The notes beneath the pieces are model-generated. The model was not told the DNA's origin, did no database searches, and worked only from the letters and a program-made list of their open reading frames with translations. A stretch of DNA of 17,291 bases from Cyanobacteria bacterium HKST-UBA02 (GTDB lineage: Bacteria > Cyanobacteriota > Vampirovibrionia > Obscuribacterales > Obscuribacteraceae), in the NCBI GenBank assembly GCA_020431945.1, contig JAGQHH010000182.1:1-17291 (forward strand), given 5' to 3'. The translations under genes and the position numbers were made by a program. Below are positions 5,370 to 17,291 of the stretch, one piece after another; position 1 is the stretch's first letter; each line of letters begins with the position of its first letter.

Positions 5370-5375
5370 CCGGGA

Positions 5376-6305
5376 ATGGGCGAAAGCGACATAACAGACA
5401 TGCAAGAGGGTGTTGACATCCAGGTAGAGACCCGGACCGGTGCGCCGGTTCATGAGAGCGAGGGCGAGGTCTTCGACGCCAGCCCCGGTCCGGCCCCGGG
5501 CTCCATCCTTTCGGGCATGGCACCGGTGGGAGTGGCACCCTCCGACGGTATCGAAATCCTTGTGCAGATGGCTCAAAAAGGCGAAATCGACGCCAAGGCC
5601 GTGGACATCATCGATGTCACCGACAGGTTCTTGAAAGCGATCGCCGCTGCGCCCCGGGAGAGCTTGAGGCAGGGAGGCAAAATCCTCTTCCATGCCTGTG
5701 TCCTCCTGCGCATGAAAGCCGAGTCGCTGCTCGCCGACGAGATCGAAGAAGACCCCATGGGTGATGACTTCATGGACTTCGACGAGAACGGCATGCCCAT
5801 CGAATTCGATTCGGCCAGGGAGCCCAGACAGATCACCATCGCCGATCTCGAAAGAGCGATCGTCCGCAAATCCCAGCGCAAGAAAGTCCGCAAACGTCAG
5901 GTCACCCTGGACGAGCTCATCAAAGCCCTGCAAGAAGCCGAGCGCATCGAGAAAGTCAGAGCCGAGCGCAAACCGAAAGAACGTATATCCATGGCCGGAT
6001 ATATGCAGGTCAATGATGTCGAAGACATACTCGATCTGGCCCACGATGAAGATATAGAGACTACAATCGATCGCGTCGAAGAGCTTCTGGCCCGCATTCT
6101 CAAGATCGGCGAAAATATCGAGCTCTTCGCCCTGGTGACCCTGCTGGAAGATCGCAGCGACTGGGTCGATACATTTCTGGCTTCTCTATTTTTGTCCAAT
6201 GCAGGTAAAATAGACCTCGAGCAGAGCGAGTTCTATGGACCTCTCTATCTGGCTCTCTGCGAAAAACTGGCGGTTGCGGATACGGTGGTATCTACCAATG
6301 GATAA
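5376..6305 (+). CDS. scpA: segregation and condensation protein A (kleisin ScpA)
   Basis: The kleisin subunit bridges the SMC heads and recruits ScpB. It is 309 residues, longer than the usual ~250, because of a disordered acidic N-terminal tail of about 55 residues. The core begins at DGIEILVQMAQKGEIDAKAV (57-76), then DVTDRFLKAI, the helical LRQGGKILFHACVLLRMKAESLL segment and a linker. The C-terminal winged helix ends LASLFLSNAGKIDLEQSEFY. The classic FEGPLDLLL start of Firmicute ScpA is absent, as I recall for cyanobacterial ScpA. The tail carries GEVFDASPGP at 30-39, a motif that recurs in ScpB. The ATG lies 6 bp after the smc stop, with AGGAG at 5360-5364 inside the smc end. The last 8 bases overlap scpB. 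Confidence 0.93.
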   Translation: MGESDITDMQEGVDIQVETRTGAPVHESEGEVFDASPGPAPGSILSGMAPVGVAPSDGIEILVQMAQKGEIDAKAVDIIDVTDRFLKAIAAAPRESLRQGGKILFHACVLLRMKAESLLADEIEEDPMGDDFMDFDENGMPIEFDSAREPRQITIADLERAIVRKSQRKKVRKRQVTLDELIKALQEAERIEKVRAERKPKERISMAGYMQVNDVEDILDLAHDEDIETTIDRVEELLARILKIGENIELFALVTLLEDRSDWVDTFLASLFLSNAGKIDLEQSEFYGPLYLALCEKLAVADTVVSTNG

Positions 6306-7167
6306 ACCAATCAAAGCAAAAGTCGAGGCAGCCCTGTTCCTTACCGAGAATCCCCTGAAGGCGCAAGCCGTGGCGACGATGATCGGCGAAGACGTCAATG
6401 TTGTGCGCCAGACCATTCTTGAATTGATCAGAGAATACGAAGAGCGTCAGGGAGGTCTGGAGATCTCGGACGACAACGGCTATATCATCCAGGTCAAAGA
6501 CGAATACTCCACCCTGGTGGACGAGTTCGTGCCCCTGGATATGCCCACGGCTCTCATCCGTACTCTCTCGGCCATCGCCATCAAGCAACCGGTAGCCCAG
6601 TCCGAGATCATCAAGATCCGCGGTCAGGGGGCATACGAGCATATCAAAGAGCTCACCGAAAGAGATCTGGTGAACAAGCGAGAAGACGGCGGGCGATCGC
6701 CTATCCTCACCACCACCAAGAAATTCCAGGAATATTTCCGGCTATCGAAAGACGGAAAGTCCTTGCGGCAGCTCCTGGGCGATTCTGAGAAAGAAAGCGG
6801 CGAGGTCTTCGATGCCTCACCGGATCCCAACGGCGAGCCAATCGGGTCGCCGGCCGAAGTTACCGATGCGGAGTACCAGCCCACTCATGACGAATCTTCG
6901 ACACTATCAGAGCCTGAGAGCGATGCTAGAGACCATCAGCCTCAGGAGGAAGATGGAGCGCCAGAGGACCTGGGAACAGAGAGCACAGGAAGCGAGCTCC
7001 AGTCTGAGTCGAAATCCGGGCCTGAATCCGAGTCCAAAACTGAAAGCGAAGAAGTCAGCGAAGGAATAGAATTCTTCGACGCCAGACCCACAGGTGAGAT
7101 ACCGGTCCTGAAAAATCCTGGTTCTAGCTCTAGTTCTGGTTCTAGTTCTAATTCTGATCTCGCGTGA
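6298..7167 (+). CDS. scpB: segregation and condensation protein B (ScpB) with long acidic/serine-rich tail
   Basis: ScpB is the dimeric winged-helix partner of ScpA in SMC condensin. The start is taken at ATG 6298, which overlaps the scpA stop (ATGGATAA). An upstream in-frame ATG (6235) would add an atypical extension inside scpA. From 6298 the protein is 289 residues and begins in family style: IKAKVEAALFLTENPLKAQAVATMIG. Two winged helices cover roughly 1-155, including SAIAIKQPVAQSEIIKIRG and LVNKREDGGRSPILTTTKKF. The ~130-residue C-terminal tail is unusual: acidic, Ser/Glu-rich and probably disordered. It contains GEVFDASPDP (168-177), the related EFFDARPTGE (258-267) and a final Ser/Gly/Asn run. 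ScpB proteins are normally about 180-200 residues. Confidence 0.92.
   Translation: MDKPIKAKVEAALFLTENPLKAQAVATMIGEDVNVVRQTILELIREYEERQGGLEISDDNGYIIQVKDEYSTLVDEFVPLDMPTALIRTLSAIAIKQPVAQSEIIKIRGQGAYEHIKELTERDLVNKREDGGRSPILTTTKKFQEYFRLSKDGKSLRQLLGDSEKESGEVFDASPDPNGEPIGSPAEVTDAEYQPTHDESSTLSEPESDARDHQPQEEDGAPEDLGTESTGSELQSESKSGPESESKTESEEVSEGIEFFDARPTGEIPVLKNPGSSSSSGSSSNSDLA
7120..7155 (+). repeat. two 18-bp repeats encoding the ScpB serine tail
   Basis: GGTTCTAGCTCTAGTTCT (7120-7137) is followed directly by GGTTCTAGTTCTAATTCT (7138-7155), encoding GSSSSS and GSSSNS. This in-frame low-complexity repeat is of the kind that expands by slippage. Its codon pattern (TCT/AGT/AAT alternating) resembles the rnj tail repeat at 9127-9162. 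Confidence 0.8.
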
Positions 7168-7925
7168 GCTCCGGAAGCGTCGCCGCCATAATCGCGGCAG
7201 CCGGAACAGGCAGCCGATTTTCTTCTGACGGCAAACCCAAGCAATTTTTCGAGCTCAATGGATATCCGATCTACATATGGTCGCTCCTCAGTCTGAGCAC
7301 TATGGACGATATCGGCCGGGTCGTTCTGGTGAGCCGGGAGTCCCTGCTGGAAGAGATGAAAGAGACCGTGGACTCGGTTTTTGCCGGACGCGGTCTGGGC
7401 GTCTCCCGGAAAAAAATCCAGCTCGTCCCCGGCGGCGATACCAGGCAGGAGTCGGTACGCCTGGGTCTGGCCAGCCTGGCGGCGGCGCCGCCCGAATTCG
7501 TCCTCGTCCATGACGCTGCCAGACCGTTCCTGACCCATGCCCTGGTGCAAGCGGTTATAGAGGAGGTCACCGCCACAGGTGCCTGCACCCTGGCTCTCAA
7601 GGTCTCCGATACGATAAAAAAAGTAGAGTCGGGCGCCATCGTCGAGACTCTGGACAGGAGCAACCTCTGGGCTGCTCACACGCCCCAGGCGGGCCGCTAC
7701 CTGTGGTTGCGGGAGGCCCACGAGCAAGCAGCCTCCAGCGGGCTCACAGCCACCGATGACGCGATGCTCCTGGAGGGCACAGGAAAACGTGTAACAATCG
7801 TCGAGAGCCGGGCCCACAATCTCAAGATAACGGTGCCCGAGGACATCGACAGGGCCGCCTCATTCAGCGATATTCTCGGTCAGATAAATGATTACGCTGA
7901 ATCTAACGCTAATATAAAATCCTGA
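7164..7925 (+). CDS. ispD: 2-C-methyl-D-erythritol 4-phosphate cytidylyltransferase (IspD)
   Basis: IspD transfers CMP from CTP to methylerythritol phosphate, the third step of the MEP isoprenoid pathway, in the cytoplasm. The 253-residue protein shows the family motifs: AAIIAAAGTGSRF (7-19) with KPKQF (24-28) for CTP binding, GGDTRQESV (90-98), LVHDAARPF (114-122), the ATDDAMLLE segment (196-204) and NLKITVPEDI (219-228). It starts with GTG at 7164, overlapping the scpB stop by four bases (GTGA), so its translation is probably coupled to scpB. Its presence in a condensin cluster is not functionally obvious. No terminator is visible right after the stop. Confidence 0.95.
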   Translation: MSSGSVAAIIAAAGTGSRFSSDGKPKQFFELNGYPIYIWSLLSLSTMDDIGRVVLVSRESLLEEMKETVDSVFAGRGLGVSRKKIQLVPGGDTRQESVRLGLASLAAAPPEFVLVHDAARPFLTHALVQAVIEEVTATGACTLALKVSDTIKKVESGAIVETLDRSNLWAAHTPQAGRYLWLREAHEQAASSGLTATDDAMLLEGTGKRVTIVESRAHNLKITVPEDIDRAASFSDILGQINDYAESNANIKS

Positions 7926-8012
7926 CCATATAGCAAGTTGACAAGTCCTCGAAAGATAACACCGGAGCATAGCTGACACCGAACTCAATATCATGGACAT
8001 AGGATCGACTAC

Positions 8013-8040
8013 TTGCAGTTTGTCCCGAATTGAATAGAAT
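8013..8040 (+). promoter_or_regulatory. candidate sepF promoter
   Basis: TTGCAG (8013-8018) and TAGAAT (8035-8040) are separated by 16 bp, giving a predicted start near 8047 and a ~105-nt leader to sepF. The -10 box matches five of six consensus bases and the -35 four of six. Other AT-rich boxes closer to the gene (around 8084) are possible. Confidence 0.35.
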
Positions 8041-8151
8041 GGGAACATCGCCTGGCACCGCCTGAGATGGCAAAGCTTATTCGTATATAAAGACACACAT
8101 TAATAGGTATCAGAACGGCATCCTATTAAAGTCCAGAAGGTAAGGAAAACT

Positions 8152-8664
8152 ATGAGTGACGACGTAAAAACCAATACCGCCGACACAAATAAGGTGTCCA
8201 ACAACCACCAGATCAAAAAGCCTGTGGTTGACCTTTTTCCGGCCCTGACGGACAAGCGGATGCTCGCTATGCAACCGGTGAGACAACAACCACAGGTACG
8301 AATGAACACCCAGATTTCTATCTTCTCGCCCGTTAGCTTCGAAGAAGCCCTCGAGATCGTTGAATGTCTTCGCGGCCGCGCCGCCACCACTATCTCGCTG
8401 GAGAACATGAAGAAGATGGACGCCAGCCGTCTCGTCGACTTCGTAGCCGGTGCCTCGGCAGCCCTGGATGGCGATTTCCACAAGCTCAGCGATCAGGTCT
8501 ATATCTTCTGCCCGAGCAATATCAAGATCACGGCAGACGCCAAGGAAGAAAAAGAAGCATCCCAGACCACCATTCCCGATGATATCGGAGCTCTGGACTT
8601 CCTCTATCCTGCTGCCACCGCCGGTGAAGCGCAGACCGCCGCCAGCCCCTGGCTCAGACATTAA
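8152..8664 (+). CDS. sepF: cell division protein SepF (DUF552)
   Basis: SepF binds FtsZ and, in many bacteria, ties the division ring to the membrane. Cyanobacteria and Firmicutes commonly have it. In this 170-residue protein the SepF fold covers about 53-127: TQISIFSPVSFEEALEIVECL, then the TTISLENMKKMDASRLVDFV strand-helix, GASAALDGDFHKLSDQVYIF and CPSNIKI. The ~50 residues before it are polar and basic. They lack the amphipathic membrane-anchor helix often found at the SepF N-terminus. The C-terminal tail (130-170) is low-complexity. The ATG has a good RBS, AAGGA, 5 bp upstream. Upstream in frame a TAG occurs before any alternative start, so the N-terminus is not mis-called. It appears to be transcribed alone. 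Confidence 0.88.
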   Translation: MSDDVKTNTADTNKVSNNHQIKKPVVDLFPALTDKRMLAMQPVRQQPQVRMNTQISIFSPVSFEEALEIVECLRGRAATTISLENMKKMDASRLVDFVAGASAALDGDFHKLSDQVYIFCPSNIKITADAKEEKEASQTTIPDDIGALDFLYPAATAGEAQTAASPWLRH

Positions 8665-8844
8665 TCAGCCGGGCATTAACGGCACTGATTTCGGCACCGG
8701 ACTTGGACCGGTATCGATACCCTTCGAAGTCCCCAAGCACCCGTCATTAATCAAATTTAGGCAACCGCCATTCGGGCTCATACCCTGTTAGCTCTTCAAG
8801 TTTTTTAACAGCTACCGGATGTCAGCACTGCTATTATGTAATTG

Positions 8845-8950
8845 CGATACGGTGCGGGTGGAAATCCCGCCAGTGCCGTGTTTCCTCCTTACCTAATCCA
8901 CCACAGGTAACTCTTCCCTCCCTCTTTGTTCGGGGAGGGAAGTTTTTTTG
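8845..8950 (+). ncRNA. candidate structured RNA or sepF 3' UTR element
   Basis: Three hairpins follow one another. In the first, ACGG 8849-8852 pairs with CCGT 8876-8879 and encloses GCGGG 8854-8858 / CCCGC 8866-8870 with a TGGAAAT loop. The second is TTACCT 8889-8894 / AGGTAA 8905-8910. The third is the terminator at 8913. No plus-strand gene follows, so a riboswitch controlling a downstream gene is unlikely here. It could be an independent small RNA or the structured end of the sepF mRNA. I could not match it to 6S, SRP, tmRNA or RNase P RNA signatures, and I see no clear dedicated promoter. Confidence 0.35.
8913..8949 (+). terminator. strong intrinsic terminator
   Basis: A perfect 10-bp stem, CTTCCCTCCC (8913-8922) with GGGAGGGAAG (8933-8942), a 10-nt loop, and seven T residues at 8943-8949. 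It ends plus-strand transcription from sepF or from the candidate structured RNA. There is no T-tract on the minus-strand side, so it is not a terminator for rnj. Confidence 0.9.
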
Positions 8951-9101
8951 TGGGTCCATAAATGAGACAGTCCACACCATTTATATGAGCCGTGGCTAAT
9001 CTTCTTTTTGGGCTTTCGACCGATAAATAGTCATTAGACATACTCAAGATATCCATCGCTGGGCATCCTGAATAAATCCTAAGAAACTGCCATCTTCGGA
9101 G

Positions 9102-10904
9102 CTAAGACTTGCTGCTCCGCCTGGTGCTCGAATTAGAACTCGAATTAGAACTCGAACTAGAATTTGCATTCGAGCCGGCACCACTGTCGAGGGTCTCAGC
9201 GCCCACTGTATTGACCCGCACCTGCACCAGGGGCTGAGAGCGCATCTCGCTCTCGAAAAAGCTCTCCAGACCCCCCTGGAGGTACTGGCTCAGATCCCCG
9301 GCCGGCAGGCTCTGGGACTTGAAGGCGGCGGCAAGGGTGCTTTTCACCTTCTCTTCCACCTTGATAACGAACTCTTCCGCCGGCATTCCCCTCGGGAGGA
9401 TCACACCACGGATGGAGACATCGGGCCCGGCGACGATCTTGCCCCGGTCCCCCACGCTCACCACCACGGTGACCAGACCGTCACTGGCCAGGCGCCGGCG
9501 CTCCTCGACGATACTCTGATCGATCCGCCAGTCCCTGTTGCTATCTATGAGAATAATCCCGGCCTTGACCCGGTCGGTGACCTTGCCACGCTCCCGGCTT
9601 ATCTCGAGAACATCGCCGTTGTCCATGACGAAAGTATTTCCTTCTTCGACTCCGCATTCTACGGCGAGCTCGGCATGACGAACCAGCATCCTGTACTCGC
9701 CATGGATGGGCATGAAAAAGCGGGGCTTGCAGATATTGAGCATGAGCTTCTGCTCTTCCCGGCAGGCATGACCGGAGACATGGACGCCGGCATCACGCCC
9801 GTAGACGACATCGGCGCCGCGCAGGAAGAGATTGTTGATGGTATTGGCCACGGAGCGCTCGTTACCAGGGATCGGAGTTGCCGAGATAATCACCGTGTCT
9901 CCCGGCATCACCTTGATCTGGCGGTGCTCGTCGTTGGCAATGCGAGTGAGGGCCGAAAGCGGCTCCCCCTGGCTCCCGGTGGTGAGAATCACGACCCTAT
10001 CCAGGGGCAGGTCTTTGACAAGCTCCACCGGCACCAGCAGATCGTCCGGGAAATTCATATAGCCCAGCTCCCGGGCTATGTCGGCGAACTTGAGCATGGA
10101 CCGGCCCAGGATCGCTACTTTCCTTCCATAACGCATGGAGACATTGAGCACCTGTCTGACCCGGTGCACATTGCTGGCGAAAGTGGTGACGATGATTCGC
10201 TGCCGGGCGCTGGCGAAGACCTCATTGAGCTTGCTCCAGACCGTCTTTTCCGAAGGTGTATAACCATCGCGCTCGGTATTGGTGCTGTCGCTCATGAGAA
10301 GCAGGATGCCTTCCTCGGCAGCTCTTGCCAGGCTGGCGAAATCATAGAGCTCGCCGTCCACTGGAGTGAAGTCGAACTTGAAATCGCCGGTATGGACGAG
10401 AACACCCACCGGAGTGCGAATCACCAGGCTGAAACTGTCGGCTATCGAATGAGTGCAGCGGATGAACTCCACCTCGAAACAACCGATCTTCACCCTCTGT
10501 CTCGGCTTGACCGTCTGAAGCCTGGTCTGCTCCTCGAGTCCGGCTTCCTTGAGCTTGGACTCGAGAAGACCCTGGGCCAGGGCAGGTCCGTATATGACCG
10601 GGATGGGAACCTCTTTGAGAATAAAAGGAATCCCGCCGATATGGTCTTCATGACCGTGGGTGATAGCCAGACCACGGATCTTGTCGGCGTTCTCTTTCAA
10701 GAAAGTGATGTCGGGAAGGACCAGGTCGACACCGAGCATGTCCTCGTTGGGAAAAGCCAGACCGGCGTCCACCAGCATCATGTCATCGCCGCAGGCGATC
10801 ACCATGGTGTTTTTGCCGATCTCGCCCAGACCACCAAGCGCTATTATCCTGAGACTGCTCTGGCTACCGCCTGTTCTGTCGATTTTTCTGCTTACCGGCG
10901 GCAA
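9102..10904 (-). CDS. rnj: ribonuclease J
   Basis: RNase J is a metallo-beta-lactamase/beta-CASP nuclease (endo- and 5'-3' exo-) that matures and degrades RNA. The 600 residues include the metal motif HGHEDH (83-88), then H171 in VHTGDF. They also include SDSTN (205-209), the beta-CASP domain, VSGHA (376-380) and MPIHGE (398-403). A C-terminal domain runs to about 570. The last ~25 residues are a Ser/Asn-rich basic tail (NSSSSSNSSSNSSTRRSSKS) absent from the core family. The start is TTG at 10904, preceded by an excellent AAGGAAGGAG RBS (10911-10920). It is the last gene of the minus-strand cluster, 45 bp after dapA. Confidence 0.96.
   Translation of the reverse strand: MPPVSRKIDRTGGSQSSLRIIALGGLGEIGKNTMVIACGDDMMLVDAGLAFPNEDMLGVDLVLPDITFLKENADKIRGLAITHGHEDHIGGIPFILKEVPIPVIYGPALAQGLLESKLKEAGLEEQTRLQTVKPRQRVKIGCFEVEFIRCTHSIADSFSLVIRTPVGVLVHTGDFKFDFTPVDGELYDFASLARAAEEGILLLMSDSTNTERDGYTPSEKTVWSKLNEVFASARQRIIVTTFASNVHRVRQVLNVSMRYGRKVAILGRSMLKFADIARELGYMNFPDDLLVPVELVKDLPLDRVVILTTGSQGEPLSALTRIANDEHRQIKVMPGDTVIISATPIPGNERSVANTINNLFLRGADVVYGRDAGVHVSGHACREEQKLMLNICKPRFFMPIHGEYRMLVRHAELAVECGVEEGNTFVMDNGDVLEISRERGKVTDRVKAGIILIDSNRDWRIDQSIVEERRRLASDGLVTVVVSVGDRGKIVAGPDVSIRGVILPRGMPAEEFVIKVEEKVKSTLAAAFKSQSLPAGDLSQYLQGGLESFFESEMRSQPLVQVRVNTVGAETLDSGAGSNANSSSSSNSSSNSSTRRSSKS
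9127..9162 (-). repeat. three 12-bp tandem repeats in the rnj tail
   Basis: On the plus strand CTCGAATTAGAA occurs at 9127-9138 and 9139-9150, and CTCGAACTAGAA at 9151-9162. In frame on the minus strand they encode the Ser/Asn run near the C-terminus of RNase J. Confidence 0.85.
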
Positions 10905-10949
10905 AAGAGGCTCCTTCCTTACTGTCTCTAACTACATAAATACCGGAGT

Positions 10950-11873
10950 CTAAGAGGAAACACAAGACAGCCGGGATGACAGACCCGCCTCGTCCACCAG
11001 GCGATCCATGGCTCTTTTCTGCTCATCGCTGAGCGGCACTAAGGGCAAGCGCAAATGCTCCTGACAGAATCCCAGCTTCTTGAGGATATATTTGAGACAG
11101 GTGGGATTGGGAGCCTGGAAGAGACCCTTGAACAGGGGCAAATGCTCGTAATGAGCCTGACGTGCCTGGTCGACCTTGCCGGCCACGGCATCTTCGATCA
11201 TGGCGACGATCTCGGCGCCGATCAGGTGGCTGGCCACGCTCACCACCCCGCAAGCCCCTACACTGACCATGGGAAGAGTGAGATAGTCGTCCCCGGAATA
11301 GATGCGAAAAGCTCCACCGGTGATGGCAGCGAGCTCGGCGGTCTGATCGACATTGCCTGCCGAATCCTTGACGGCATGGACAGTCGGGCTGTCCTCGGCA
11401 ATCTGTCGCATGGTAGCAGGCTCGATATTGATCCCGGTCCGACCCGGAATGTTATAGATCACCAGAGGCAATTCCGTGGCATCGGCGATCGCTCTCACAT
11501 GAGCCCTGATACCGGCCTGGCTGGGTTTGTTGTAATAGGGCGCCACTATGAGAAGCCCGTCGGCTCCGGCTTTTTCGGCCGCTAGAGAGGATTCGATGGA
11601 GGAAGCGGTATTGTTCGAGCCTGCTCCGAAGAGGACTTTGGCTTTTCCTCTGGCAAGCTCGATCACTTTCTTGAGCAGCTCCAGTTTCTCGCTCCCGGTC
11701 AGTGTCGGGCTCTCTCCGGTGGTGCCCGCCACCAGGATGGTGGTGGTTCCGGTCTTGATCAAATGCGCGGCGATCTTCTCGACAGCGGGATAATCGATGT
11801 CGCCCTTCTCGTCGAACGGCGTCACCATTGCCGTCATCAGTCGTCCGAATAGAGGCGCATCATTTTCGACCAC
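10950..11873 (-). CDS. dapA: 4-hydroxy-tetrahydrodipicolinate synthase (DapA)
   Basis: DapA condenses pyruvate with aspartate semialdehyde, the first committed step to diaminopimelate and lysine. The 307-residue TIM-barrel protein has GTTGE (50-54), APYYNKP (111-117), YNIPGRTG (140-147) with the catalytic Tyr140, Arg145 at the active-site mouth, and the Schiff-base Lys169 in VKDSAG. The start is GTG at 11873 with a strong GAGGAG RBS 7 bp away (11881-11886). It lies 22 bp downstream of asd, which makes its substrate, and 45 bp upstream of rnj. All catalytic residues expected from the E. coli enzyme are present. Confidence 0.96.
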   Translation of the reverse strand: MVENDAPLFGRLMTAMVTPFDEKGDIDYPAVEKIAAHLIKTGTTTILVAGTTGESPTLTGSEKLELLKKVIELARGKAKVLFGAGSNNTASSIESSLAAEKAGADGLLIVAPYYNKPSQAGIRAHVRAIADATELPLVIYNIPGRTGINIEPATMRQIAEDSPTVHAVKDSAGNVDQTAELAAITGGAFRIYSGDDYLTLPMVSVGACGVVSVASHLIGAEIVAMIEDAVAGKVDQARQAHYEHLPLFKGLFQAPNPTCLKYILKKLGFCQEHLRLPLVPLSDEQKRAMDRLVDEAGLSSRLSCVSS

Positions 11874-11895
11874 TTCCCATCTCCTCTTGTCTGAA

Positions 11896-12933
11896 TCAGT
11901 TCTTTACCGCTTGTTTGAGCAGGTCGTGCTCGAGAATATACTCGGCAATCCGCACCGCATTCAGTGCGGCACCTATACGCAGATTGTCGGCTACGACCCA
12001 GAGATTGATGCCGTTTTCAGAAGATGTATCGCGCCTGATCCGCCCCACATAGACCGGATCCTGTCCGGCGCAATCGATGGGGGTAGGATAGCGAAGACTC
12101 TCAGGCTCGTCCCAGATCTCGATGATCGGGCTGTCCGCGAGACTCTCTCTCACCTGGGCAGGACTGACGGCTTTCTCGAGATCCACGGTAACCGCCTCGC
12201 TATGGCCGACGGAGACAGGCACCCGCACTGCCGTGCAGGTCACAGGCAGATTCGGGAGGTCGAGGATTTTTCTGGTCTCCTCAATCACCTTGGCCTCTTC
12301 CTTCGTATAGCCGTCCTCGAGAAATACGTCGATCTGCGGGATCAGATTGAAAGCAATCTGTCTCGGCATGACCCGGACATTGGCATCGGCGCCTTCGAGA
12401 AGAGCCCGGGACTGATGCTCGAGCTCGTCCATGGCTTCTTTGCCGGCGCCGCTCACCGATTGATATGTCGACACGATCACGCGCTTTAGTCCGGCCAGCT
12501 CATGGAGGATCTTGAGCACGACGACGAGTTGCGAAGTCGAGCAATTGGGATTGGCGATCACGCCCTTGTGATTGCGCAGGGTCTCGCCGTTCACTTCCGG
12601 CACCACCAGCGGTACCTCGGGCTTCATCCGGAAAGCGCTGGAATTGTCGATGATGACAGCGCCGCTGTCGGTGATTGTCTTCACCCACTTCTCGCTCACC
12701 GAAGCACCGGCGGACGCCAGAACGATGTCGATACCCTTGAAGGCCTCTTCGCTCACCTCGACAACATCGTACTCCTCACCCTTGAAGCGCACCTTGCTAT
12801 TGGCAGACCTGGCGCTGGCCAGGGGAACGAAGCGATCGACAGGAAAGTCGCGCTCCTCGAGTACCGAGATGAGCTCCTGACCGACACGGCCAGTGGCCCC
12901 TAGAATTGCTACATTGACAGGTTTGTTTGACAT
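11896..12933 (-). CDS. asd: aspartate-semialdehyde dehydrogenase
   Basis: Asd reduces aspartyl phosphate to aspartate semialdehyde, the branch-point precursor of lysine/diaminopimelate, threonine and methionine. I choose ATG at 12933. It gives the family start SNKPVNVAILGATGRVGQEL, a normal 345-residue length and an excellent GGAGGGAG RBS 5-6 bp upstream. A longer frame to 12972 adds 13 residues unlike the family. Visible motifs are the nucleotide-binding GATGRVG (12-18), NPNCSTSQ with catalytic Cys131, and RVPVSVGHSE with the active-site His244. The gene starts 82 bp after dapB. Confidence 0.96.
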   Translation of the reverse strand: MSNKPVNVAILGATGRVGQELISVLEERDFPVDRFVPLASARSANSKVRFKGEEYDVVEVSEEAFKGIDIVLASAGASVSEKWVKTITDSGAVIIDNSSAFRMKPEVPLVVPEVNGETLRNHKGVIANPNCSTSQLVVVLKILHELAGLKRVIVSTYQSVSGAGKEAMDELEHQSRALLEGADANVRVMPRQIAFNLIPQIDVFLEDGYTKEEAKVIEETRKILDLPNLPVTCTAVRVPVSVGHSEAVTVDLEKAVSPAQVRESLADSPIIEIWDEPESLRYPTPIDCAGQDPVYVGRIRRDTSSENGINLWVVADNLRIGAALNAVRIAEYILEHDLLKQAVKN

Positions 12934-13015
12934 CTGGGCTCCCTCCGGCTGCCAATTTAGCATGAATGTCATGATGTGACGAGATCCGGGTTCTAATCGG
13001 CTTTACAGAAGATTT

Positions 13016-13828
13016 TCAAAGCAGGCTCTCGAGACCCACTGTAAGACCCTTCATCTCTCGAGTCGCCTTGATGCTCATCAGAATGCCCTTTAGAAAGCAA
13101 TTGGTGTTGAAACTGTCATGCCGGATCGAGAGCAGCTCGCCATCGGCACCGAAAACCACGTCCTGATGGGAGATCAACCCCGGAAGACGGAGGGAGTGCA
13201 CCCTCACCCCGGCTTCGGTCACGCCACCCCGGCAGCCAGTCAGGAGCTCGTGGTCCTGTACTTCCCGGGGATTATAAGTGCGTCCCTCAGCGGCCTCCGC
13301 CAGCTTGCGGGTCGTGTACATGGCAGTGCCCGACGGGGCGTCCACCTTTTTGGTTCCGTGCATCTCGATCACCTCGACATGACCGAAATGCTTGCCGGCC
13401 TGCCTGGCGAATTCCATCATCAGGACGGCTCCCACCGAAAAATTGGGAACCACCATGGCCCCCAGACCGGCTTCGTCCACCCAGGAGGAAAGCCGCTCGA
13501 AATCGGCAGCCACCAGGCCGGATGTGCCGATCAGGGGTCGGACCCCCTTTGAAAGACAAATTCTTGCGTGCTCCAGGGCAGACGGAGCGACAGTGAACTC
13601 GAGAAGGACATCGGGATGGCTTGCCGCCAGGCAGTCGTCGAGATCCGGGCTCACCTTTACTCCCAGACTCTTGCCCAGAACCAGGTCGCCGATGTCAGTG
13701 CCCACATAGGCTGCGTCGCTCTTGCCGAAGGCTCCCACCAGGGACAGCTCGGGATCGGCGACGATAGCAGGGGCCGAGGCTCTTCCCATCTTGCCGTTGA
13801 TCCCGGCAATGGCTACCTTGATAGTCAT
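13016..13828 (-). CDS. dapB: 4-hydroxy-tetrahydrodipicolinate reductase (DapB) with altered substrate motif
   Basis: DapB reduces the DapA product to tetrahydrodipicolinate using NAD(P)H. The 270 residues have the Rossmann GINGKMG (9-15), FTVAPS and GTSGL segments (78-105), and VPNFSVGA (127-134). The substrate signature reads EMHGTKKVDAPSGTA (155-169). In the E. coli enzyme this is EAHHRHKVDAPSGTA, so the catalytic His (here H157) and Lys (K161) are kept but the second His is Gly158. The start ATG has GGAGGG just upstream (13832-13838). It sits 39 bp after dut in the same cluster. Confidence 0.95.
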   Translation of the reverse strand: MTIKVAIAGINGKMGRASAPAIVADPELSLVGAFGKSDAAYVGTDIGDLVLGKSLGVKVSPDLDDCLAASHPDVLLEFTVAPSALEHARICLSKGVRPLIGTSGLVAADFERLSSWVDEAGLGAMVVPNFSVGAVLMMEFARQAGKHFGHVEVIEMHGTKKVDAPSGTAMYTTRKLAEAAEGRTYNPREVQDHELLTGCRGGVTEAGVRVHSLRLPGLISHQDVVFGADGELLSIRHDSFNTNCFLKGILMSIKATREMKGLTVGLESLL

Positions 13829-13867: not shown

Positions 13868-14323
13868 CTATTTGAGAGCCGTCCTGCCTGTGGAGCCGAA
13901 GCCCCCCTCACCCCTGGCGGAGCTAGAGACGGCTTCCACCACCTCGATCTCTACCTGAGGAACAGGCATGACCACGAGCTGGGCGATGCGCTCGCCGGGC
14001 TTGAATATATACGGCTCCTTGCCATGGTTGATGATCAAGACCATGACTTCTCCGCGGTAATCGCTGTCGATAGTGCCGATGCAATTGGTGAGACTGATGC
14101 CGGCCCGGTCCGCCAGACCCGAGCGAGCCCGGACCTGCCCTTCATAGCCTGTGGGGATCTCGACCTTGATACCGGTGGGAAGCTTGGCGCGGTCCCCGGC
14201 GCCTATCTCGATCGCCTCTTCGCTGGCAAGGGTGAGATCAAGACCTGCCGATCCGGAGGTGGCATAGTCGGGCAGGGCGACACAATGGGACAGCTTCTCG
14301 ATTTTCAGGTGGACTTTGCTCAT
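13868..14323 (-). CDS. dut: deoxyuridine 5'-triphosphate nucleotidohydrolase (dUTPase)
   Basis: It hydrolyses dUTP to dUMP and pyrophosphate, preventing uracil incorporation and feeding dTMP synthesis. I choose ATG at 14323 (RBS CGGAG 6-7 bp upstream). This gives 151 residues, the usual size of the trimeric enzyme. The frame is open further upstream to 14446, but that extension runs into the small-RNA terminator. All five motifs are present: AGLDL (26-30), RSGL (67-70), GTIDSDYRGE with catalytic Asp86 (83-92), RIAQLV (112-117) and the C-terminal arm RGEGGFGSTG (137-146). It is the first gene of the dut-dapB-asd-dapA-rnj cluster. Confidence 0.96.
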   Translation of the reverse strand: MSKVHLKIEKLSHCVALPDYATSGSAGLDLTLASEEAIEIGAGDRAKLPTGIKVEIPTGYEGQVRARSGLADRAGISLTNCIGTIDSDYRGEVMVLIINHGKEPYIFKPGERIAQLVVMPVPQVEIEVVEAVSSSARGEGGFGSTGRTALK

Positions 14324-14382: not shown

Positions 14383-14418
14383 AGGAAGAAGGCAGAGGGT
14401 CTGCCTGAAAAAAAGCGC

Positions 14419-14455
14419 AAAAACAAATATGCCACCCGATTTGCATCGCGGTGGC
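14419..14455 (-). terminator. intrinsic terminator of small RNA copy 1
   Basis: Minus strand: GCCACC, a bulged G, CGAT, GCAA loop, ATCG, GGTGGC, then ATATTTGTTTTTG. The GNRA loop and CGAT/ATCG pairing are intact. It lies ~95 bp before the dut start. Confidence 0.75.
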
Positions 14456-14631
14456 TTATTCGCTACTTCCTGGCTGCCTGCTGCGAACAGGCTAAGTATT
14501 TCCTTGTGCTTCAGCCAGTCCTTCACACATGGCGGGCTTCATGCTGCGGTCTCTGGTTGGGCGCCAACCTGGTGTTTCCGCATTGCCCCTCGGCTCAAAG
14601 CGCTCACTCAATGAACGCTCACCGTCTACAT
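14420..14631 (-). ncRNA. small structured RNA, copy 1 (dut-proximal)
   Basis: The predicted transcript runs from about 14631 to the T-tract near 14420. Minus-strand stems: P1 AGCGTTCA/TGAGCGCT with a TTGAG loop; P2 GGTTGG-CGC-CCAACC; P3 CTGGCT/AGCCAG enclosing GCCTG/CAGGC; then a terminator capped by GCAA. A 16-codon ATG frame (14492-14542, MKPAMCEGLAEAQGNT) lies inside. This copy has GGAAACACC where the others have GGAAACGCC. It is the last RNA before dut. The family is not one I recognise. Confidence 0.75.
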
Positions 14632-14636
14632 TCATT

Positions 14637-14665
14637 ACTATATCAATCTACCCCGGGCTTGAGAA
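14637..14665 (-). promoter_or_regulatory. promoter of small RNA copy 1
   Basis: On the minus strand TTCTCA (14660-14665), a 17-bp spacer and TATAGT (14637-14642). The A-rich TTCGAAAAAAGAAAATCGGG lies just upstream, like an UP element. Confidence 0.75.
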
Positions 14666-14755
14666 GTACCCCGATTTTCTTTTTTCGAAAATGTTTTTGC
14701 TCGCTTGCCACCCGCATGTTCAGCCGCTCTTCAATTGCGAGGCACCACCGACAAT

Positions 14756-14765
14756 GCCGGGCCCA
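14756..14765 (-). promoter_or_regulatory. conserved upstream element, copy 1
   Basis: The minus strand reads TGGGCCCGGC, a two-base variant of TGGGCCGAGC. It begins exactly 90 bp beyond the -35 box. Confidence 0.5.
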
Positions 14766-14846
14766 GCCGCATACTAAGGCTCACGAGGATCGCACTGGGC
14801 ATCGCACGCCTGGACTGCATATTGAGCCAGAAAGCCCATGAACAGG

Positions 14847-14886
14847 CGCTTTCCGAGTTATACACAGCTTGACAAAGCCACCACCG
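14847..14886 (-). repeat. distal conserved block A (unit 1)
   Basis: Minus strand: GGTGGTGGCTTTGTCAAGCTGTGTATAACT..., the diverged member of four. It lies ~200 bp upstream of the copy 1 -35 box and shortly after the copy 2 terminator. Confidence 0.65.
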
Positions 14887-14911
14887 GAGCTACCAGCAAA
14901 AATGCCAAATG

Positions 14912-14945
14912 ACAAAAACACCACCCGACTTTCATCGCGGTGGTG
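14912..14945 (-). terminator. intrinsic terminator of small RNA copy 2
   Basis: Minus strand: CACCACC, a bulged G, CGAT, GAAA loop, GTCG, GGTGGTG, then TTTTTGTC. Confidence 0.8.
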
Positions 14946-15120
14946 CTTCTGCTACTTCCTGGCTGCCTGCTGCGAACAGGCTAAGTATTTCCTTGTGCTT
15001 CAGTCAGTCCTTCACACATGGCGGGCTTCATGCTGCGGTCTCTGGTTGGGCGCCAACCTGGCGTTTCCGCATTGCCCCTCGGCTCAAAGCGCTCACTTAC
15101 TGAACGCTCACCGTCTACAT
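14913..15120 (-). ncRNA. small structured RNA, copy 2
   Basis: The predicted transcript runs from about 15120 to 14913. It has the same four-hairpin plan as copy 1: P1 loop GTAAG, P2 with CCAACC. P3 reads CTGACT against AGCCAG, so one pair is broken in this copy. The terminator loop is GAAA. The internal 16-codon frame (14981-15031) has Ala to Thr at residue 10. Confidence 0.75.
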
Positions 15121-15125
15121 TTATT

Positions 15126-15154
15126 ACTATACCAAGCTACCCCCGCTCTGAGAA
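15126..15154 (-). promoter_or_regulatory. promoter of small RNA copy 2
   Basis: TTCTCA (15149-15154), a 17-bp spacer, TATAGT (15126-15131). The spacer sequence differs from copy 1 at many positions, but its length and the two boxes are identical. Confidence 0.75.
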
Positions 15155-15244
15155 GTACCCCGATTTTCTTTTTTCGAAAAAGTTTTCGCATCACTCTACT
15201 CCGCACAGAAAGCCGCTTTCCGACTATCGAGCACCATCAGCAAT

Positions 15245-15254
15245 GCTCGGCCCA
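15245..15254 (-). promoter_or_regulatory. conserved upstream element, copy 2
   Basis: TGGGCCGAGC on the minus strand, exactly 90 bp beyond the -35 box. Confidence 0.55.
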
Positions 15255-15336
15255 GTTGCTGGGTAACGCATACGACGATCGCTTAACGGCAAACGCTCGA
15301 ACTCGCTGAATGCCTCGCGAAATACAGATAAACAGG

Positions 15337-15387
15337 TGCTTTCAGAGTTTTTTACAGCTTGACAAAAGCCACCACTGGAAACACCAT
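15337..15387 (-). repeat. distal conserved block B (unit 2)
   Basis: Minus strand: GATGGTGTTTCC, GTGGTGGC, then TTTTGTCAAGCTGTAAAAAA. It is ~200 bp upstream of the copy 2 -35 box and directly follows the copy 3 terminator. Confidence 0.65.
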
Positions 15388-15403
15388 CGAAAATACCCAA
15401 ATG

Positions 15404-15437
15404 ACAAAAACACCACCCGACTTTCATCGCGGTGGTG
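15404..15437 (-). terminator. intrinsic terminator of small RNA copy 3
   Basis: The same hairpin as copy 2 (CACCACC/GGTGGTG, GAAA loop) followed by TTTTTGTC on the minus strand. Confidence 0.8.
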
Positions 15438-15612
15438 CTTCTGCTACTTCCTGGCTGCCTGCTGCGAACAGGCTAAGTATTTCCTTGTGCTTCAGCCAGT
15501 CCTTCACACATGGCGGGCTTCATGCTGCCGTCTCCGGTTAGGCGCCAACCTGGCGTTTCCGCATTGCCCCTCGGCTCAAAGCGCTCACTTAATGAACGCT
15601 CACCGTCTACAT
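15405..15612 (-). ncRNA. small structured RNA, copy 3
   Basis: The predicted transcript runs from about 15612 to 15405. P1 has a TTAAG loop and keeps the U.G pair. P2 closes with CTAACC (G.U instead of G-C). P3 is fully paired. The terminator equals that of copy 2 (GAAA loop, A-U and C-G outer pairs). The internal ATG frame is at 15473-15523, here preceded by a GGAG sequence. Confidence 0.75.
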
Positions 15613-15617
15613 TTACT

Positions 15618-15646
15618 ACTATAGCAAGCTGCCCACGCCCTGAGAA
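15618..15646 (-). promoter_or_regulatory. promoter of small RNA copy 3
   Basis: TTCTCA (15641-15646), a 17-bp spacer, TATAGT (15618-15623), with the same A-rich upstream stretch. Confidence 0.75.
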
Positions 15647-15736
15647 GTACCCCGATTTTCTTTTTTCGAAAAAGTTTTCGACTGCACAAAACCCGCATAA
15701 CAACTCACTCTTAAATGTTTCGATCGAAGCACGATC

Positions 15737-15746
15737 GCTCGGCCCA
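15737..15746 (-). promoter_or_regulatory. conserved upstream element, copy 3
   Basis: TGGGCCGAGC on the minus strand, exactly 90 bp beyond the -35 box. Most of the intervening sequence is unlike copies 1 and 4. Confidence 0.55.
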
Positions 15747-15814
15747 TTTGCTCTTTCTGCATTTACAGCGTTCGCTTTTCGCCCACCTTTGTCTCCGGAG
15801 ACCAGCTTGTCATG

Positions 15815-15868
15815 CCGCTTTCAGGAGTTTTTGACAGCTTGACATACGCCACCACCCGAAACACCATC
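15815..15868 (-). repeat. distal conserved block C (unit 3)
   Basis: Minus strand contains GATGGTGTTTCGGGTGGTGG and TGTCAAGCTGTCAAAAACTC. The plus strand shows the direct repeat TTGACAGC-TTGACA. It is ~189 bp upstream of the copy 3 -35 box. Confidence 0.65.
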
Positions 15869-16267
15869 TTTCAGGCGAATCGGGTCGATAATCTATGGAT
15901 CGCGAACTGCTTTACAGCAAAGCTCGCCTGGCAAGCCGGATCTCACGGCATGCCAATTCCTGTCGCCTGCCGCTTCTTTCAACACCATGCTCTTCTTAGA
16001 GCTTTTGTTTCCATCTTCCTGGTATGAAAGATCCTCGGGGTCCAGGAGCTGCCGGATCAGCCCTTTGCCACCAACCGGTGAGGGATAATCTCGCTGCTTC
16101 GGACTTTGGTCCCTGAGGCAGGCTTATTTTGTTGTTTAGAAGGCTTCGGCAATCCGGCTATGACTTACGGATTAACCAACGTCTCTATTACTGTTATACA
16201 CCAGAGCCAGGCAAAAAGCGACGAAGAATTTTTCTCAGACAGCCTGGCGCCGATCCCGGAAAGCCCT
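15869..16267. other. spacer between units 3 and 4
   Basis: About 400 bp without a convincing gene, and no small-RNA body in it. Its first ~90 bp look weakly related to the sequence beyond block D (16739-16830). For example, GCCTGGCAAGC at 15926-15936 matches GCCAGGCAAGC at 16795-16805 at nearly the same distance from the block. This suggests that the ancestral unit was longer than 470 bp. Confidence 0.45.
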
Positions 16268-16480
16268 ATAAACAAATACACCACCCGACTTGCATCGCGG
16301 TGGCGTATTCGCTACTTCCTGGCTGCCTGCTGCGAACAGGCTAAGTATTTCCTTGTGCTTCAGCCAGTCCTTCACACATGGCGGGCTTCATGCTGCGGTC
16401 TCCGGTTAGGCGCCAACCTGGCGTTTCCGCATTGCCCCTCGGCTCAAAGCGTTCACTTAATGAACGCTCACCGTCTACAT
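16268..16480 (-). ncRNA. small structured RNA, copy 4 (promoter-distal from dut)
   Basis: The predicted transcript runs from about 16480 to 16268. P1 is perfectly Watson-Crick here (TGAACGCT pairs with AGCGTTCA). P2 has the G.U form. The terminator stem is extended by ATAC/GTAT and contains a G.U pair where copy 1 has G-C and copies 2 and 3 have A-U. The internal frame is at 16341-16391. Confidence 0.75.
16270..16308 (-). terminator. intrinsic terminator of small RNA copy 4
   Basis: Minus strand: ATACGCCACC, a bulged G, CGAT, GCAA loop, GTCG, GGTGGTGTAT, then TTGTTTATAG. The stem is the longest of the four and the T-tract the weakest. Confidence 0.65.
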
Positions 16481-16485
16481 TCATT

Positions 16486-16514
16486 ACTATAGCAATCTAC
16501 CCACGCCCTGAGAA
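16486..16514 (-). promoter_or_regulatory. promoter of small RNA copy 4
   Basis: TTCTCA (16509-16514), a 17-bp spacer, TATAGT (16486-16491). The A-rich stretch has one change (TTTTCGGAAAAAG) relative to the other copies. Confidence 0.75.
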
Positions 16515-16604
16515 GTACCCCGATTTTCTTTTTCCGAAAAAGTTTTTGCTCGCTTACAACCCGCATGATTAGCCACTCTGTCCAACTGCTTGAAATGCAA
16601 AAGT

Positions 16605-16614
16605 GCTCGGCCCA
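16605..16614 (-). promoter_or_regulatory. conserved upstream element, copy 4
   Basis: TGGGCCGAGC on the minus strand, exactly 90 bp beyond the -35 box. Confidence 0.55.
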
Positions 16615-16683
16615 CCCATGGCACAAACACCTTGCGGATTCACGAACGATTCACGGTTACAGCATCGAAACCAGCATGACAAG

Positions 16684-16738
16684 CCGATTTCGGAAGTTTT
16701 TGACAGCTTGACAAACGCCACCACCCGGAACACCATTT
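16684..16738 (-). repeat. distal conserved block D (unit 4)
   Basis: Minus strand contains ATGGTGTTCCGGGTGGTGGC and TGTCAAGCTGTCAAAAACTT. The plus strand shows TTGACAGC-TTGACA. It is ~190 bp upstream of the copy 4 -35 box. Confidence 0.65.
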
Positions 16739-16740
16739 TT

Positions 16741-17266
16741 CTGGCTTTCCGGGTATTCTTTATCCGACTTTCGGCTCTACCTTGTAGTTCGAGCCGCCAG
16801 GCAAGCACGTTTCGAGCTTGCCAAACTCATTGACCCTGATATCGCCCCCGGTGCCTGTCAGGGCACGCGGAAATAGAGCCTGGTGTCTGGCAAGTACTCC
16901 GCATACGGTCGATGCGTCGCTTATTTAAGGCGACCTGTCGACTCGAATCTGCTGCTTGCTCGGACTAAGACTGTCAGGCGCAGATGGTCTTTGACTTTTA
17001 AAGGACTTCCGGAACCACCGTCTTTTGACATCCGGTCGGTTCTTTGGTCTCTATATCAGTTATACAATACCTACCCATAAAAAGGAATGCCACAAAAGCC
17101 CAAAACCAAAATATTTCTGTGATTTGCCTGTTTCTTACAGAGGATCTAGGACCCTATTTTCCAGGCTCCGAAATCTCCCGCCCCTGGCCAGACGGGTTTA
17201 AACTTCATGACAGAACTTGCCAAGTGCAAGCCCTGCCCGGGTTCTCCCCATATAATAGGTACACTC
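16741..17266. other. region between the array and the tRNA gene
   Basis: About 525 bp with no recognisable protein gene. An open frame at 16883-17080 has no RBS or family signature. A hairpin GTCGC (16916-16920) / GCGAC (16930-16934) has no T-tract. The right end carries the tRNA promoter. Confidence 0.5.
17251..17256 (+). promoter_or_regulatory. -10 box of the tRNA gene
   Basis: A perfect TATAAT about 11 bp before the tRNA 5' end, so transcription would begin close to the mature end. No clear -35 box is seen at 16-18 bp. Confidence 0.55.
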
Positions 17267-17291
17267 GCCGACGTAGCTCAGTGGTAGAGCA
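17267..17291 (+). tRNA. tRNA gene, 5' part only
   Basis: GCCGACG (acceptor 5' strand), TA, GCTC, AGTGGTA, GAGC, A: a canonical acceptor strand plus D-arm cut by the window edge. The anticodon is outside. The acceptor sequence resembles some tRNA-Thr genes, but the identity cannot be fixed. Confidence 0.85.

What the first reader, a model, noticed from the sequence alone, without database searches (positions are those of the whole stretch)
14419..16740. Four tandem genes for an unrecognised ~210-nt structured RNA
In a ~2.9-kb stretch without protein genes, a ~165-nt core is repeated four times. Each copy has its own promoter boxes on one side and an intrinsic terminator on the other, all on the minus strand. 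The core is almost invariant while promoter spacers and flanks have diverged, as expected for separately selected RNA genes and not a recent passive duplication. Tandem small-RNA arrays are known in cyanobacteria (for example the NsiR1 array of Anabaena), but I do not recognise this sequence or its hairpin plan.
Basis: partly seen in the sequence, partly recalled or inferred. Interest (0 to 1): 0.9.

Follow-up and report, generated by a model that had tools for sequence, protein, structure and literature searches.

The report
Four tandem poplar-1 RNA genes
The four repeats are genes for a catalogued but functionally unexplained bacterial RNA (Rfam 'poplar-1'); comparing relatives shows a tightly folded RNA with a probable kink-turn and a pseudoknot, and found it only in one order of non-photosynthetic cyanobacterial relatives.

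Summary
Four copies, each with a -10 box and a terminator hairpin, lie on the minus strand between dut and a tRNA. 'Unrecognised' is wrong: all four match Rfam RF03041 (poplar-1) over its whole length at 131.6-133.7 bits (gathering score 110.5). No function for it turned up in my searches of the held papers.

The comparison adds: (1) Poplar-1 is in 47 of 53 genomes of the order of an Obscuribacterales record, 1-14 copies each, and was confirmed in none of at least 187 other class genomes. (2) Across 60 copies, 44 of 57 base pairs show changes on both sides (0 of 500 shuffles). (3) Rfam's printed structure lacks a 5' hairpin fitting the kink-turn consensus, and a pseudoknot (77 of 84 copies keep 7 pairs). 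(4) The commonest form of its promoter gave 54 matches in 20 genomes, all just upstream of poplar-1; the window's own variant was not tested. (5) An old copy sits upstream of dut. (6) It replaces neither 6S nor SRP RNA.

Most likely it is a trans-acting folded RNA that works as a ribonucleoprotein or decoy, not a cis element. Function is inferred.

The parts
14414..14630 (-). poplar-1 RNA gene, copy 1 (predicted transcript, ends approximate; conserved fold 14463-14624; Rfam core 14459-14599)
   Evidence: RF03041 132.0 bits; extended model R1 166.1 bits, this copy being one of the 49 rows R1 was built from; terminator z -4.2
14905..15119 (-). poplar-1 RNA gene, copy 2 (ends approximate; conserved fold 14952-15113; Rfam core 14948-15088); the only window copy with an A.C mismatch in the pseudoknot
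   Evidence: RF03041 133.7 bits; R1 167.2 bits (same caveat); fold z -4.3; terminator z -5.2
15397..15611 (-). poplar-1 RNA gene, copy 3 (ends approximate; conserved fold 15444-15605; Rfam core 15440-15580)
   Evidence: RF03041 132.4 bits; R1 166.6 bits (same caveat); terminator z -6.2
16265..16479 (-). poplar-1 RNA gene, copy 4 (ends approximate; conserved fold 16312-16473; Rfam core 16308-16448)
   Evidence: RF03041 131.6 bits; R1 167.5 bits (same caveat); terminator z -4.3
14637..14690 (-). promoter of copy 1: A/T-rich stretch + CGGGGTACTTCTC box, 17-nt spacer, TATAGT (14642-14637)
   Evidence: The genome-wide pattern (TANACTAA form) does not match this TATAGT variant, so its exclusiveness was not tested
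15126..15182 (-). promoter of copy 2 (TATAGT 15131-15126)
   Evidence: same caveat
15618..15674 (-). promoter of copy 3 (TATAGT 15623-15618)
   Evidence: same caveat
16486..16542 (-). promoter of copy 4 (TATAGT 16491-16486)
   Evidence: same caveat
13868..14323 (-). dut (dUTPase), the recurrent downstream neighbour of this poplar-1 site in the order
   Evidence: Pfam dUTPase PF00692, 107.9 bits; a dut match in 52 of 53 genomes, one of them weak; poplar-1 within 1.5 kb upstream on the same strand in 19 of 30 fetched dut loci
15885..16215 (-). X1: structured spacer segment, possible second RNA gene (not poplar-1)
   Evidence: fold z -3.3 over 303 nt; its two halves z -3.3 and -1.4; related to X2; no credible Rfam match; no DNA match in 53 genomes
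16750..17085 (-). X2: second copy of the structured spacer segment
   Evidence: fold z -3.1 over 306 nt; its two halves z -2.2 and -1.4; alignment with X1

Best explanation
The feature is a lineage-specific tandem array of four genes for poplar-1 RNA (RF03041) at an old site of that family, upstream of dut, in an Obscuribacterales-type bacterium. SHOWN by comparison: each gene has its own conserved promoter region and ends in a terminator hairpin; in relatives the commonest form of this promoter was found only at poplar-1 genes. The transcript is one compact domain: a 5' hairpin whose base has the sequence of a kink-turn (CGGU-GA-stem ... stem-NNN-GA-GCCG); a long arm with a symmetric 10 x 10 internal loop carrying GGAAAC on both strands; a hairpin whose loop pairs with the 3' strand of the last arm (pseudoknot); and the terminator hairpin. 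INFERRED: the RNA acts in trans as a folded object, most likely the scaffold or decoy of an order-specific ribonucleoprotein (or a small-ligand binder), with its dose set partly by 1-14 gene copies. Reasons: conservation lies in internal loops and tertiary-contact elements, I see no long exposed seed, and no constant neighbouring gene. Base-pairing with mRNAs is the less likely mode, and cis control of dut is unlikely. Confidence: that these are poplar-1 genes, about 0.98; that the kink-turn and the pseudoknot form, about 0.8 and 0.97; that it works as a folded RNP or decoy rather than by antisense pairing, about 0.55.
For: Identity: four full-length RF03041 matches above the gathering score. 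Fold (60 of the 72 distinct copies, those with enough flank): 96.8% of 3386 cells paired, 44 of 57 pairs changed on both sides, 0 of 500 shuffles as high on four measures and 1 of 500 on the fifth, slid controls 33-37% paired. In structure-blind APC-corrected mutual information 13 of the top 16 column pairs are pairs of this structure, the pseudoknot pair 150-196 being the sixteenth; background pairs become common further down. Pseudoknot: CUGACUG/CAGUCAG, CUAGCUG/CAGCUAG, CUGGCUG/CAGCCAG and UCUGAUG/CAUCAGA all occur; 77 of 84 copies have 7 contiguous pairs, G-U allowed, no shuffle control for this count; the six pairs of the helix are 97.5% paired, 4 of 6 with double changes. Kink-turn: each of the four G/A positions kept in 59-60 of 60; GA/GA in 81 of 84 parsed copies; bulge letters in ten forms; the closing C-G became A-U in 2 copies of one genome. 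Promoter: 54 of 54 matches at poplar-1. Copy number: 216 matches in 47 genomes, at least 2 in 40 of them. Not cis to dut: the distance runs from about 0.1 to 1.8 kb, with an M16 peptidase gene between in G013 and G020, and 62 of the 86 copies on the tree lie elsewhere. The other neighbours scanned (PALP enzymes, protein kinase, TPR protein, lyase) share no theme. Not 6S or SRP: 6S-like matches in 31 of 53 and SRP RNA in 47 of 53 genomes exist alongside it.
Against: No expression data and no partner protein. The promoter search used one strict pattern that matches 32 of 65 copies with enough upstream sequence and none of the four window copies, so exclusiveness is shown for the commonest form only. 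L7Ae-type proteins (PF01248) match in only 4 of 53 genomes; the four pass Pfam's cut-off but at 23-31 bits inside 427-697-residue frames, so the kink-turn mostly lacks its classic partner. Six of 53 genomes lack the RNA even with a tuned model and laxer filters, so it is not needed in all of the order, or those assemblies miss it. The base helix of the kink-turn almost never varies: covariation backs it with only 2 double changes, in one genome and perhaps one event, and one copy (G020) breaks the outer pair. No target search for antisense pairing was run, so that mode is not excluded.
Confidence: 0.6

Rival explanations
1. Antisense (base-pairing) multicopy sRNA, working like NsiR1 of Nostoc: sibling copies act on one or several mRNAs.
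For: Tandem copies with own promoters, as in NsiR1 (PMC9045159, passages seen). Conserved GGAAAC strands in the internal loop and the GA(A/C)GGA of the third loop could be offered to targets. Paralogue groups differ in the loop that makes the pseudoknot.
Against: The most conserved unpaired bases sit in internal loops and at joints, not in one exposed stretch. The variable loop is held to its 3' partner by compensatory change, which is what a pseudoknot does, not a target seed. GAAGGA is GACGGA in many copies and missing in the five divergent (TCTGA-type) copies of alignment A2. No target search was run.
Confidence: 0.25
2. A housekeeping RNA in disguise (6S, SRP or tmRNA-like) that replaces the normal one in this order.
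For: About 205 nt, near-universal in the order, multicopy and compact. The CAGGUC...GGAA letters recall SRP RNA (my recollection).
Against: 6S-like matches in 31 of 53 (1 over the gathering score) and SRP RNA in 47 of 53 genomes are found separately. Rfam scores the repeats as poplar-1 only. The fold is not a 6S-like rod. tmRNA and RNase P were not searched in the genomes.
Confidence: 0.04
3. A small mobile or selfish element that happens to carry a promoter and terminator and spreads as dispersed copies.
For: Copies are dispersed, up to 14 per genome, and several sit at contig ends.
Against: In the window, homology drops sharply outside promoter and terminator. The dut-site copies form one nearly continuous group on the tree (3 changes against 21 in shuffles, 0 of 500 as low), i.e. 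vertical inheritance. No transposase among the ten neighbouring proteins scanned. Heavy compensatory change shows the RNA is selected.
Confidence: 0.08
4. A cis-acting leader or attenuator of the dut-dapB operon.
For: Upstream of dut on the same strand in 19 of 30 fetched dut loci.
Against: The copies have their own terminator hairpins, the distance to dut varies more than tenfold, and 62 of the 86 copies on the tree lie elsewhere.
Confidence: 0.03

Closest known systems
Rfam RF03041, poplar-1 RNA (type Gene; sRNA)
   Same: All four copies match the whole 141-position model above the gathering score, with the helices of the Rfam structure line.
   Different: The genes are longer: the Rfam model begins inside the 5' hairpin, so it lacks the kink-turn, and its printed structure has no pseudoknot and no terminator. 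Tandem arrangement, promoter and dut-site ancestry come from this work. Whether the original publication mentions any of them could not be checked (the paper I recall is not held).
NsiR1 array of Nostoc/Anabaena
   Same: Several tandem copies, each with its own promoter, in a cyanobacterial lineage (PMC9045159, passages seen).
   Different: NsiR1 is about 60 nt and works antisense (same passages); poplar-1 is about 205 nt with a covarying fold. Relatedness by sequence was not tested.
OLE RNA with OapC (YbxF)
   Same: A structured stand-alone bacterial RNA with a kink-turn (PMC9723947, passages seen).
   Different: OLE is ~600 nt, of Bacillota (abstracts), and its kink-turn binds an L7Ae-like protein; that family matches in only 4 of 53 genomes here.
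6S RNA
   Same: Stand-alone, around 200 nt.
   Different: Different fold; a separate 6S-like match exists in 31 of 53 genomes.

Membership tests
poplar-1 (RF03041) | covariance-model score at or above the gathering score 110.5 | tested here: met
   132.0, 133.7, 132.4 and 131.6 bits for copies 1-4
poplar-1 (RF03041) | full-length match to the 141-position model with its base pairs | tested here: met
   1-141 in all four; no non-standard pair marked in the alignments printed for all four
poplar-1 (RF03041) | independent (stand-alone) gene | tested here: inconclusive
   conserved promoter region and terminator hairpin fit; transcription was not measured
kink-turn | 3-nt bulge followed by tandem G.A and A.G between two helices | tested here: met
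   GA/GA in 81 of 84 parsed copies (one of the three exceptions is a misparse), bulge letters variable; 59-60 of 60 at each position
kink-turn | acute kink in three dimensions | not testable with these tools
   needs FRET, crystallography or probing
OLE-type RNP with L7Ae-family partner | an L7Ae-family (PF01248) protein in the same genomes | tested here: not met
   4 of 53 genomes, over the cut-off but at 23-31 bits inside 427-697-residue frames; 7 of 14 control genomes ring
6S RNA | match to RF00013 | tested here: not met
   window scan lists no 6S match up to E = 1; 6S-like matches lie elsewhere in 31 of 53 genomes
Bacterial SRP RNA | match to RF00169 | tested here: not met
   none in the window; separate SRP RNA in 47 of 53 genomes
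NsiR1-like tandem antisense sRNA | action by base-pairing with mRNA | not tested
   no target prediction or interactome was run; tandem copies with own promoters are shared (passages)
CsrB-like protein sponge (definition recalled) | several conserved GGA motifs in hairpin loops | tested here: not met
   read by eye on alignment A2: one hairpin loop (the third) carries GGA, and four of the five divergent copies (L026, L027, L031, L032) lack it; CsrA itself not searched

The most novel reading that the evidence does not exclude
Poplar-1 is the core of an order-specific ribonucleoprotein of the non-photosynthetic cyanobacterial sister lineage Obscuribacterales.
Probability: 0.22. Interest if true: 0.75.

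Novelty: new member of a known kind. Interest (0 to 1): 0.45.

Why it matters
Poplar-1 is one of many catalogued bacterial RNAs for which I found no known job. Showing that it is near-universal and mostly multicopy in one order, was confirmed nowhere else in the class and phylum samples, and carries a testable kink-turn and pseudoknot turns an anonymous Rfam entry into a concrete target. A ~205-nt RNA with predicted ends can be made in vitro, probed and used to fish for its partner. If it is an RNP, it would be a lineage-specific RNA machine in a group known, in the records seen here, from metagenome-assembled genomes.

Tried and rejected
Rejected: coding (mechanical ORFs overlap the repeats, but the covariation explains the conservation); 6S or SRP replacement; a general L7Ae-type partner; distant poplar-1 outside the order: the single class hit of the tuned model outside it, G379 at 25.5 bits, lies inside a 615-codon open frame, lacks most of the central domain and has no Rfam poplar-1 match, so I take it as a false positive; homologues in viral contigs (0 with one exact 22-letter pattern); X1 in the 53 order genomes (0 by DNA, which warns that an empty answer without a positive control shows little) and in loci near other poplar-1 genes (0 by blastn). 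The four window spacers without X are not structured (z -0.2 to +1.4); of four L003 spacer stretches one reached z -2.5 and the others -1.0 to +0.8, not followed further. A structural consensus of X1/X2 from only two sequences gave 18 of 55 pairs with double changes, too few sequences to conclude. The phylum and class searches scored only the best 10-12 candidates per genome with strict filters, so very diverged relatives could be missed. The paper that I recall as the source of the family was not held; searches for 'poplar-1 RNA', for 'poplar-1'+'Rfam'+'sRNA' and for 'RF03041' found no paper; a broader search held 123 papers, of which I saw the 20 listed and recognised none as describing it. 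'Obscuribacter'+'small RNA' found none.
Full report
WHAT IS THERE. One search finds a 300-nt direct-repeat family with four copies on the minus strand between dut (13868-14323; Pfam dUTPase) and the beginning of a tRNA at 17267 (19.6 bits, cut off by the window end). The copies start 489, 492 and 868 nt apart. breaks the conservation down: the RNA body is 96-98% identical between copies, the -10 box 100%, an upstream box 93%, the promoter spacer 73%, the terminator 83% and the flanks 34-44%. The four terminator hairpins fold with z between -4.2 and -6.2, although the generic terminator scan reported only one of them.

WHAT IT IS. Rfam names it: RF03041, poplar-1 RNA, 131.6-133.7 bits over model positions 1-141 in each copy, against a gathering score of 110.5. 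So it is not unrecognised, although no function turned up: the held library has no paper with 'poplar-1 RNA', with 'poplar-1', 'Rfam' and 'sRNA' together, or with 'RF03041', and the paper that I recall as the source is not held.

WHERE IT OCCURS. One exact pattern scan of the species-genome collection hit eight stretches, in records titled Obscuribacter, Obscuribacterales, Melainabacteria (two), 'Cyanobacteria SZAS-4' (three) and one labelled Proteobacteria. The 53 held genomes of the order of the Obscuribacterales record were searched: 47 have poplar-1, 44 over the gathering score, and 0 of 14 controls. Copies per genome run from 1 to 14; the table sums to 216, with two or more in 40 of the 47. 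Several copies sit at contig ends, so counts are probably lower bounds. In a class sample of 240 genomes the same 47 match, so at least 187 sampled genomes outside the order have none. In a phylum sample only the centre itself matches, 1 of 292. Both samples were scored with strict filters on 10-12 candidates per genome. A tuned model (R1) added one class genome, G379, but that match lies in a 615-codon open frame, lacks most of the central domain and has no Rfam poplar-1 match. The six order genomes without it stay empty with R1 and laxer filters.

HOW IT FOLDS. Sixty of 72 distinct copies, those with enough flank, were aligned with leader and terminator. In structure-blind covariation 13 of the top 16 column pairs are pairs of one structure; background pairs become common further down the list. 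For that structure of 57 pairs, 96.8% of cells pair, 44 pairs show changes on both sides, and 0 of 500 shuffles reach the observed values on four measures (1 of 500 on the fifth, further pair types); slid controls pair at 33-37%. Two elements are absent from the Rfam structure line printed. First, the Rfam model starts inside a 5' hairpin whose base reads CGGU-GA-[stem]-NNN-GA-GCCG. This fits the kink-turn plan (strand details recalled; a bulge followed by G.A and A.G pairs is stated in an abstract listed). GA/GA is kept in 81 of 84 parsed copies, the bulge letters take ten forms, and the outer C-G pair became A-U in two copies of one genome, perhaps one event; one copy breaks it. The hairpin above it is well supported: 7 of 7 pairs with double changes. 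Second, the loop of the third hairpin pairs with the 3' strand of the last arm: 77 of 84 copies have seven contiguous pairs, G-U allowed, with CUGACUG/CAGUCAG, CUAGCUG/CAGCUAG, CUGGCUG/CAGCCAG and, in divergent paralogues, UCUGAUG/CAUCAGA (no shuffle control for this count). The seventh pair shares a base with the neighbouring arm, so six pairs were counted: 97.5% paired, 4 of 6 with double changes. In the window, copies 1, 3 and 4 pair fully and copy 2 has one A.C mismatch.

HOW IT IS EXPRESSED. Upstream of most of 64 copies a common design is visible: an A/T-rich stretch, GGGGTA(C/G)T, about 20 nt, TANACTAA or (as in the window) TATAGT, then about 12 nt to CGGTGAG; 63 of 65 copies have GGGG within 100 nt upstream. 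A search for GGGGTASTN{18,25}TANACTAA in 20 genomes, which hold 106 Rfam matches, gave 54 matches (2 for the reversed control). All 54 lie just upstream of a poplar-1 copy, whole or cut by a contig end: 30 in the fetched loci, 4 more checked, and 20 by coordinates. So this form of the promoter is private to the RNA. The strict pattern matches 32 of 65 copies and none of the four window copies; the window's own variant was not searched in genomes. Five of the 20 genomes lack poplar-1, and they have no match.

HISTORY. Poplar-1 lies within 1.5 kb upstream of dut on the same strand in 19 of 30 fetched dut loci, one of the 30 having almost no upstream sequence. On a quick tree of 86 copies with many weak forks the dut-site copies need 3 label changes against about 21 in shuffles (0 of 500 as low), and the four window copies group together (support 90). 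The dut site is therefore old and vertically inherited, other copies form separate groups, and this window's array grew by duplication in its own lineage.

WHAT IT DOES. It is not a stand-in for 6S (31 of 53 genomes have a separate 6S-like match, 1 over the gathering score) or SRP RNA (47 of 53). L7Ae-family proteins, the kind that binds the kink-turn of OLE RNA (PMC9723947, passages), match in only 4 of 53 genomes, over Pfam's cut-off but at 23-31 bits inside long frames. The kink-turn therefore probably serves the RNA's own fold or binds something else. Among the ten neighbouring proteins scanned no theme stands out. I infer a trans-acting folded RNA, most likely an RNP scaffold or decoy, its dose raised by copy number. 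Antisense action of the NsiR1 kind (PMC9045159, passages) remains a rival and was not tested by target search.

A SECOND REPEAT. Two further segments, X1 (15885-16215) and X2 (16750-17085), are related to each other and fold better than shuffles (z -3.3 and -3.1 whole; halves -3.3, -1.4, -2.2, -1.4), unlike the four plain spacers of the window. Rfam has no credible match and X1 has no DNA match in the 53 genomes. They may be a second RNA gene pair, but two sequences cannot prove it.

VERDICT. What is new here is anatomy, promoter, distribution and ancestry, not a new kind of RNA.

Noticed in passing
window 15885-16215 and 16750-17085, minus strand: Two related ~330-nt structured segments (X1, X2) interleaved with poplar-1 copies 3 and 4, sharing a TGTATAAC...ATAGAGAC start and a GGCANGC...GCTTGCC hairpin; possible second, undescribed RNA gene pair.
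   Followed up: partly
window 14838-14909, 15328-15400, 15798-15885, 16667-16754: A short repeated element lies 5' of every poplar-1 copy (families D2-D5), with a GTGGTGGC..TTTGTC stretch like the 3' half of the poplar-1 terminator; perhaps a relic of the duplicated unit's end.
   Followed up: no
window 17267-17291, plus strand: Start of a tRNA gene cut off by the window end, with a TATAAT box upstream; the tRNA finder reports none.
   Followed up: no
window 1839-13828: smc, scpA-like (below the curated cut-offs), scpB and ispD on the plus strand; rnj, dapA, asd and dapB on the minus strand. The dapB, asd and dapA proteins recur next to poplar-1 in relatives L001, L003 and L006.
   Followed up: partly
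window 8152-8664, plus strand: A 170-aa frame downstream of ispD without an NCBIfam match but with a Pfam SepF (cell division) domain, 69.9 bits.
   Followed up: partly
53 genomes of the order: 6S RNA matches score mostly below Rfam's gathering score (only 1 of 31 above), suggesting a diverged 6S in this order.
   Followed up: no
L026, L027, L031, L032, L035: Divergent poplar-1 paralogues with a rewritten third loop and, in most, a matching partner strand (TCTGATG/CATCAGA type), from genomes (G003, G004) that also carry the dut-site type.
   Followed up: partly
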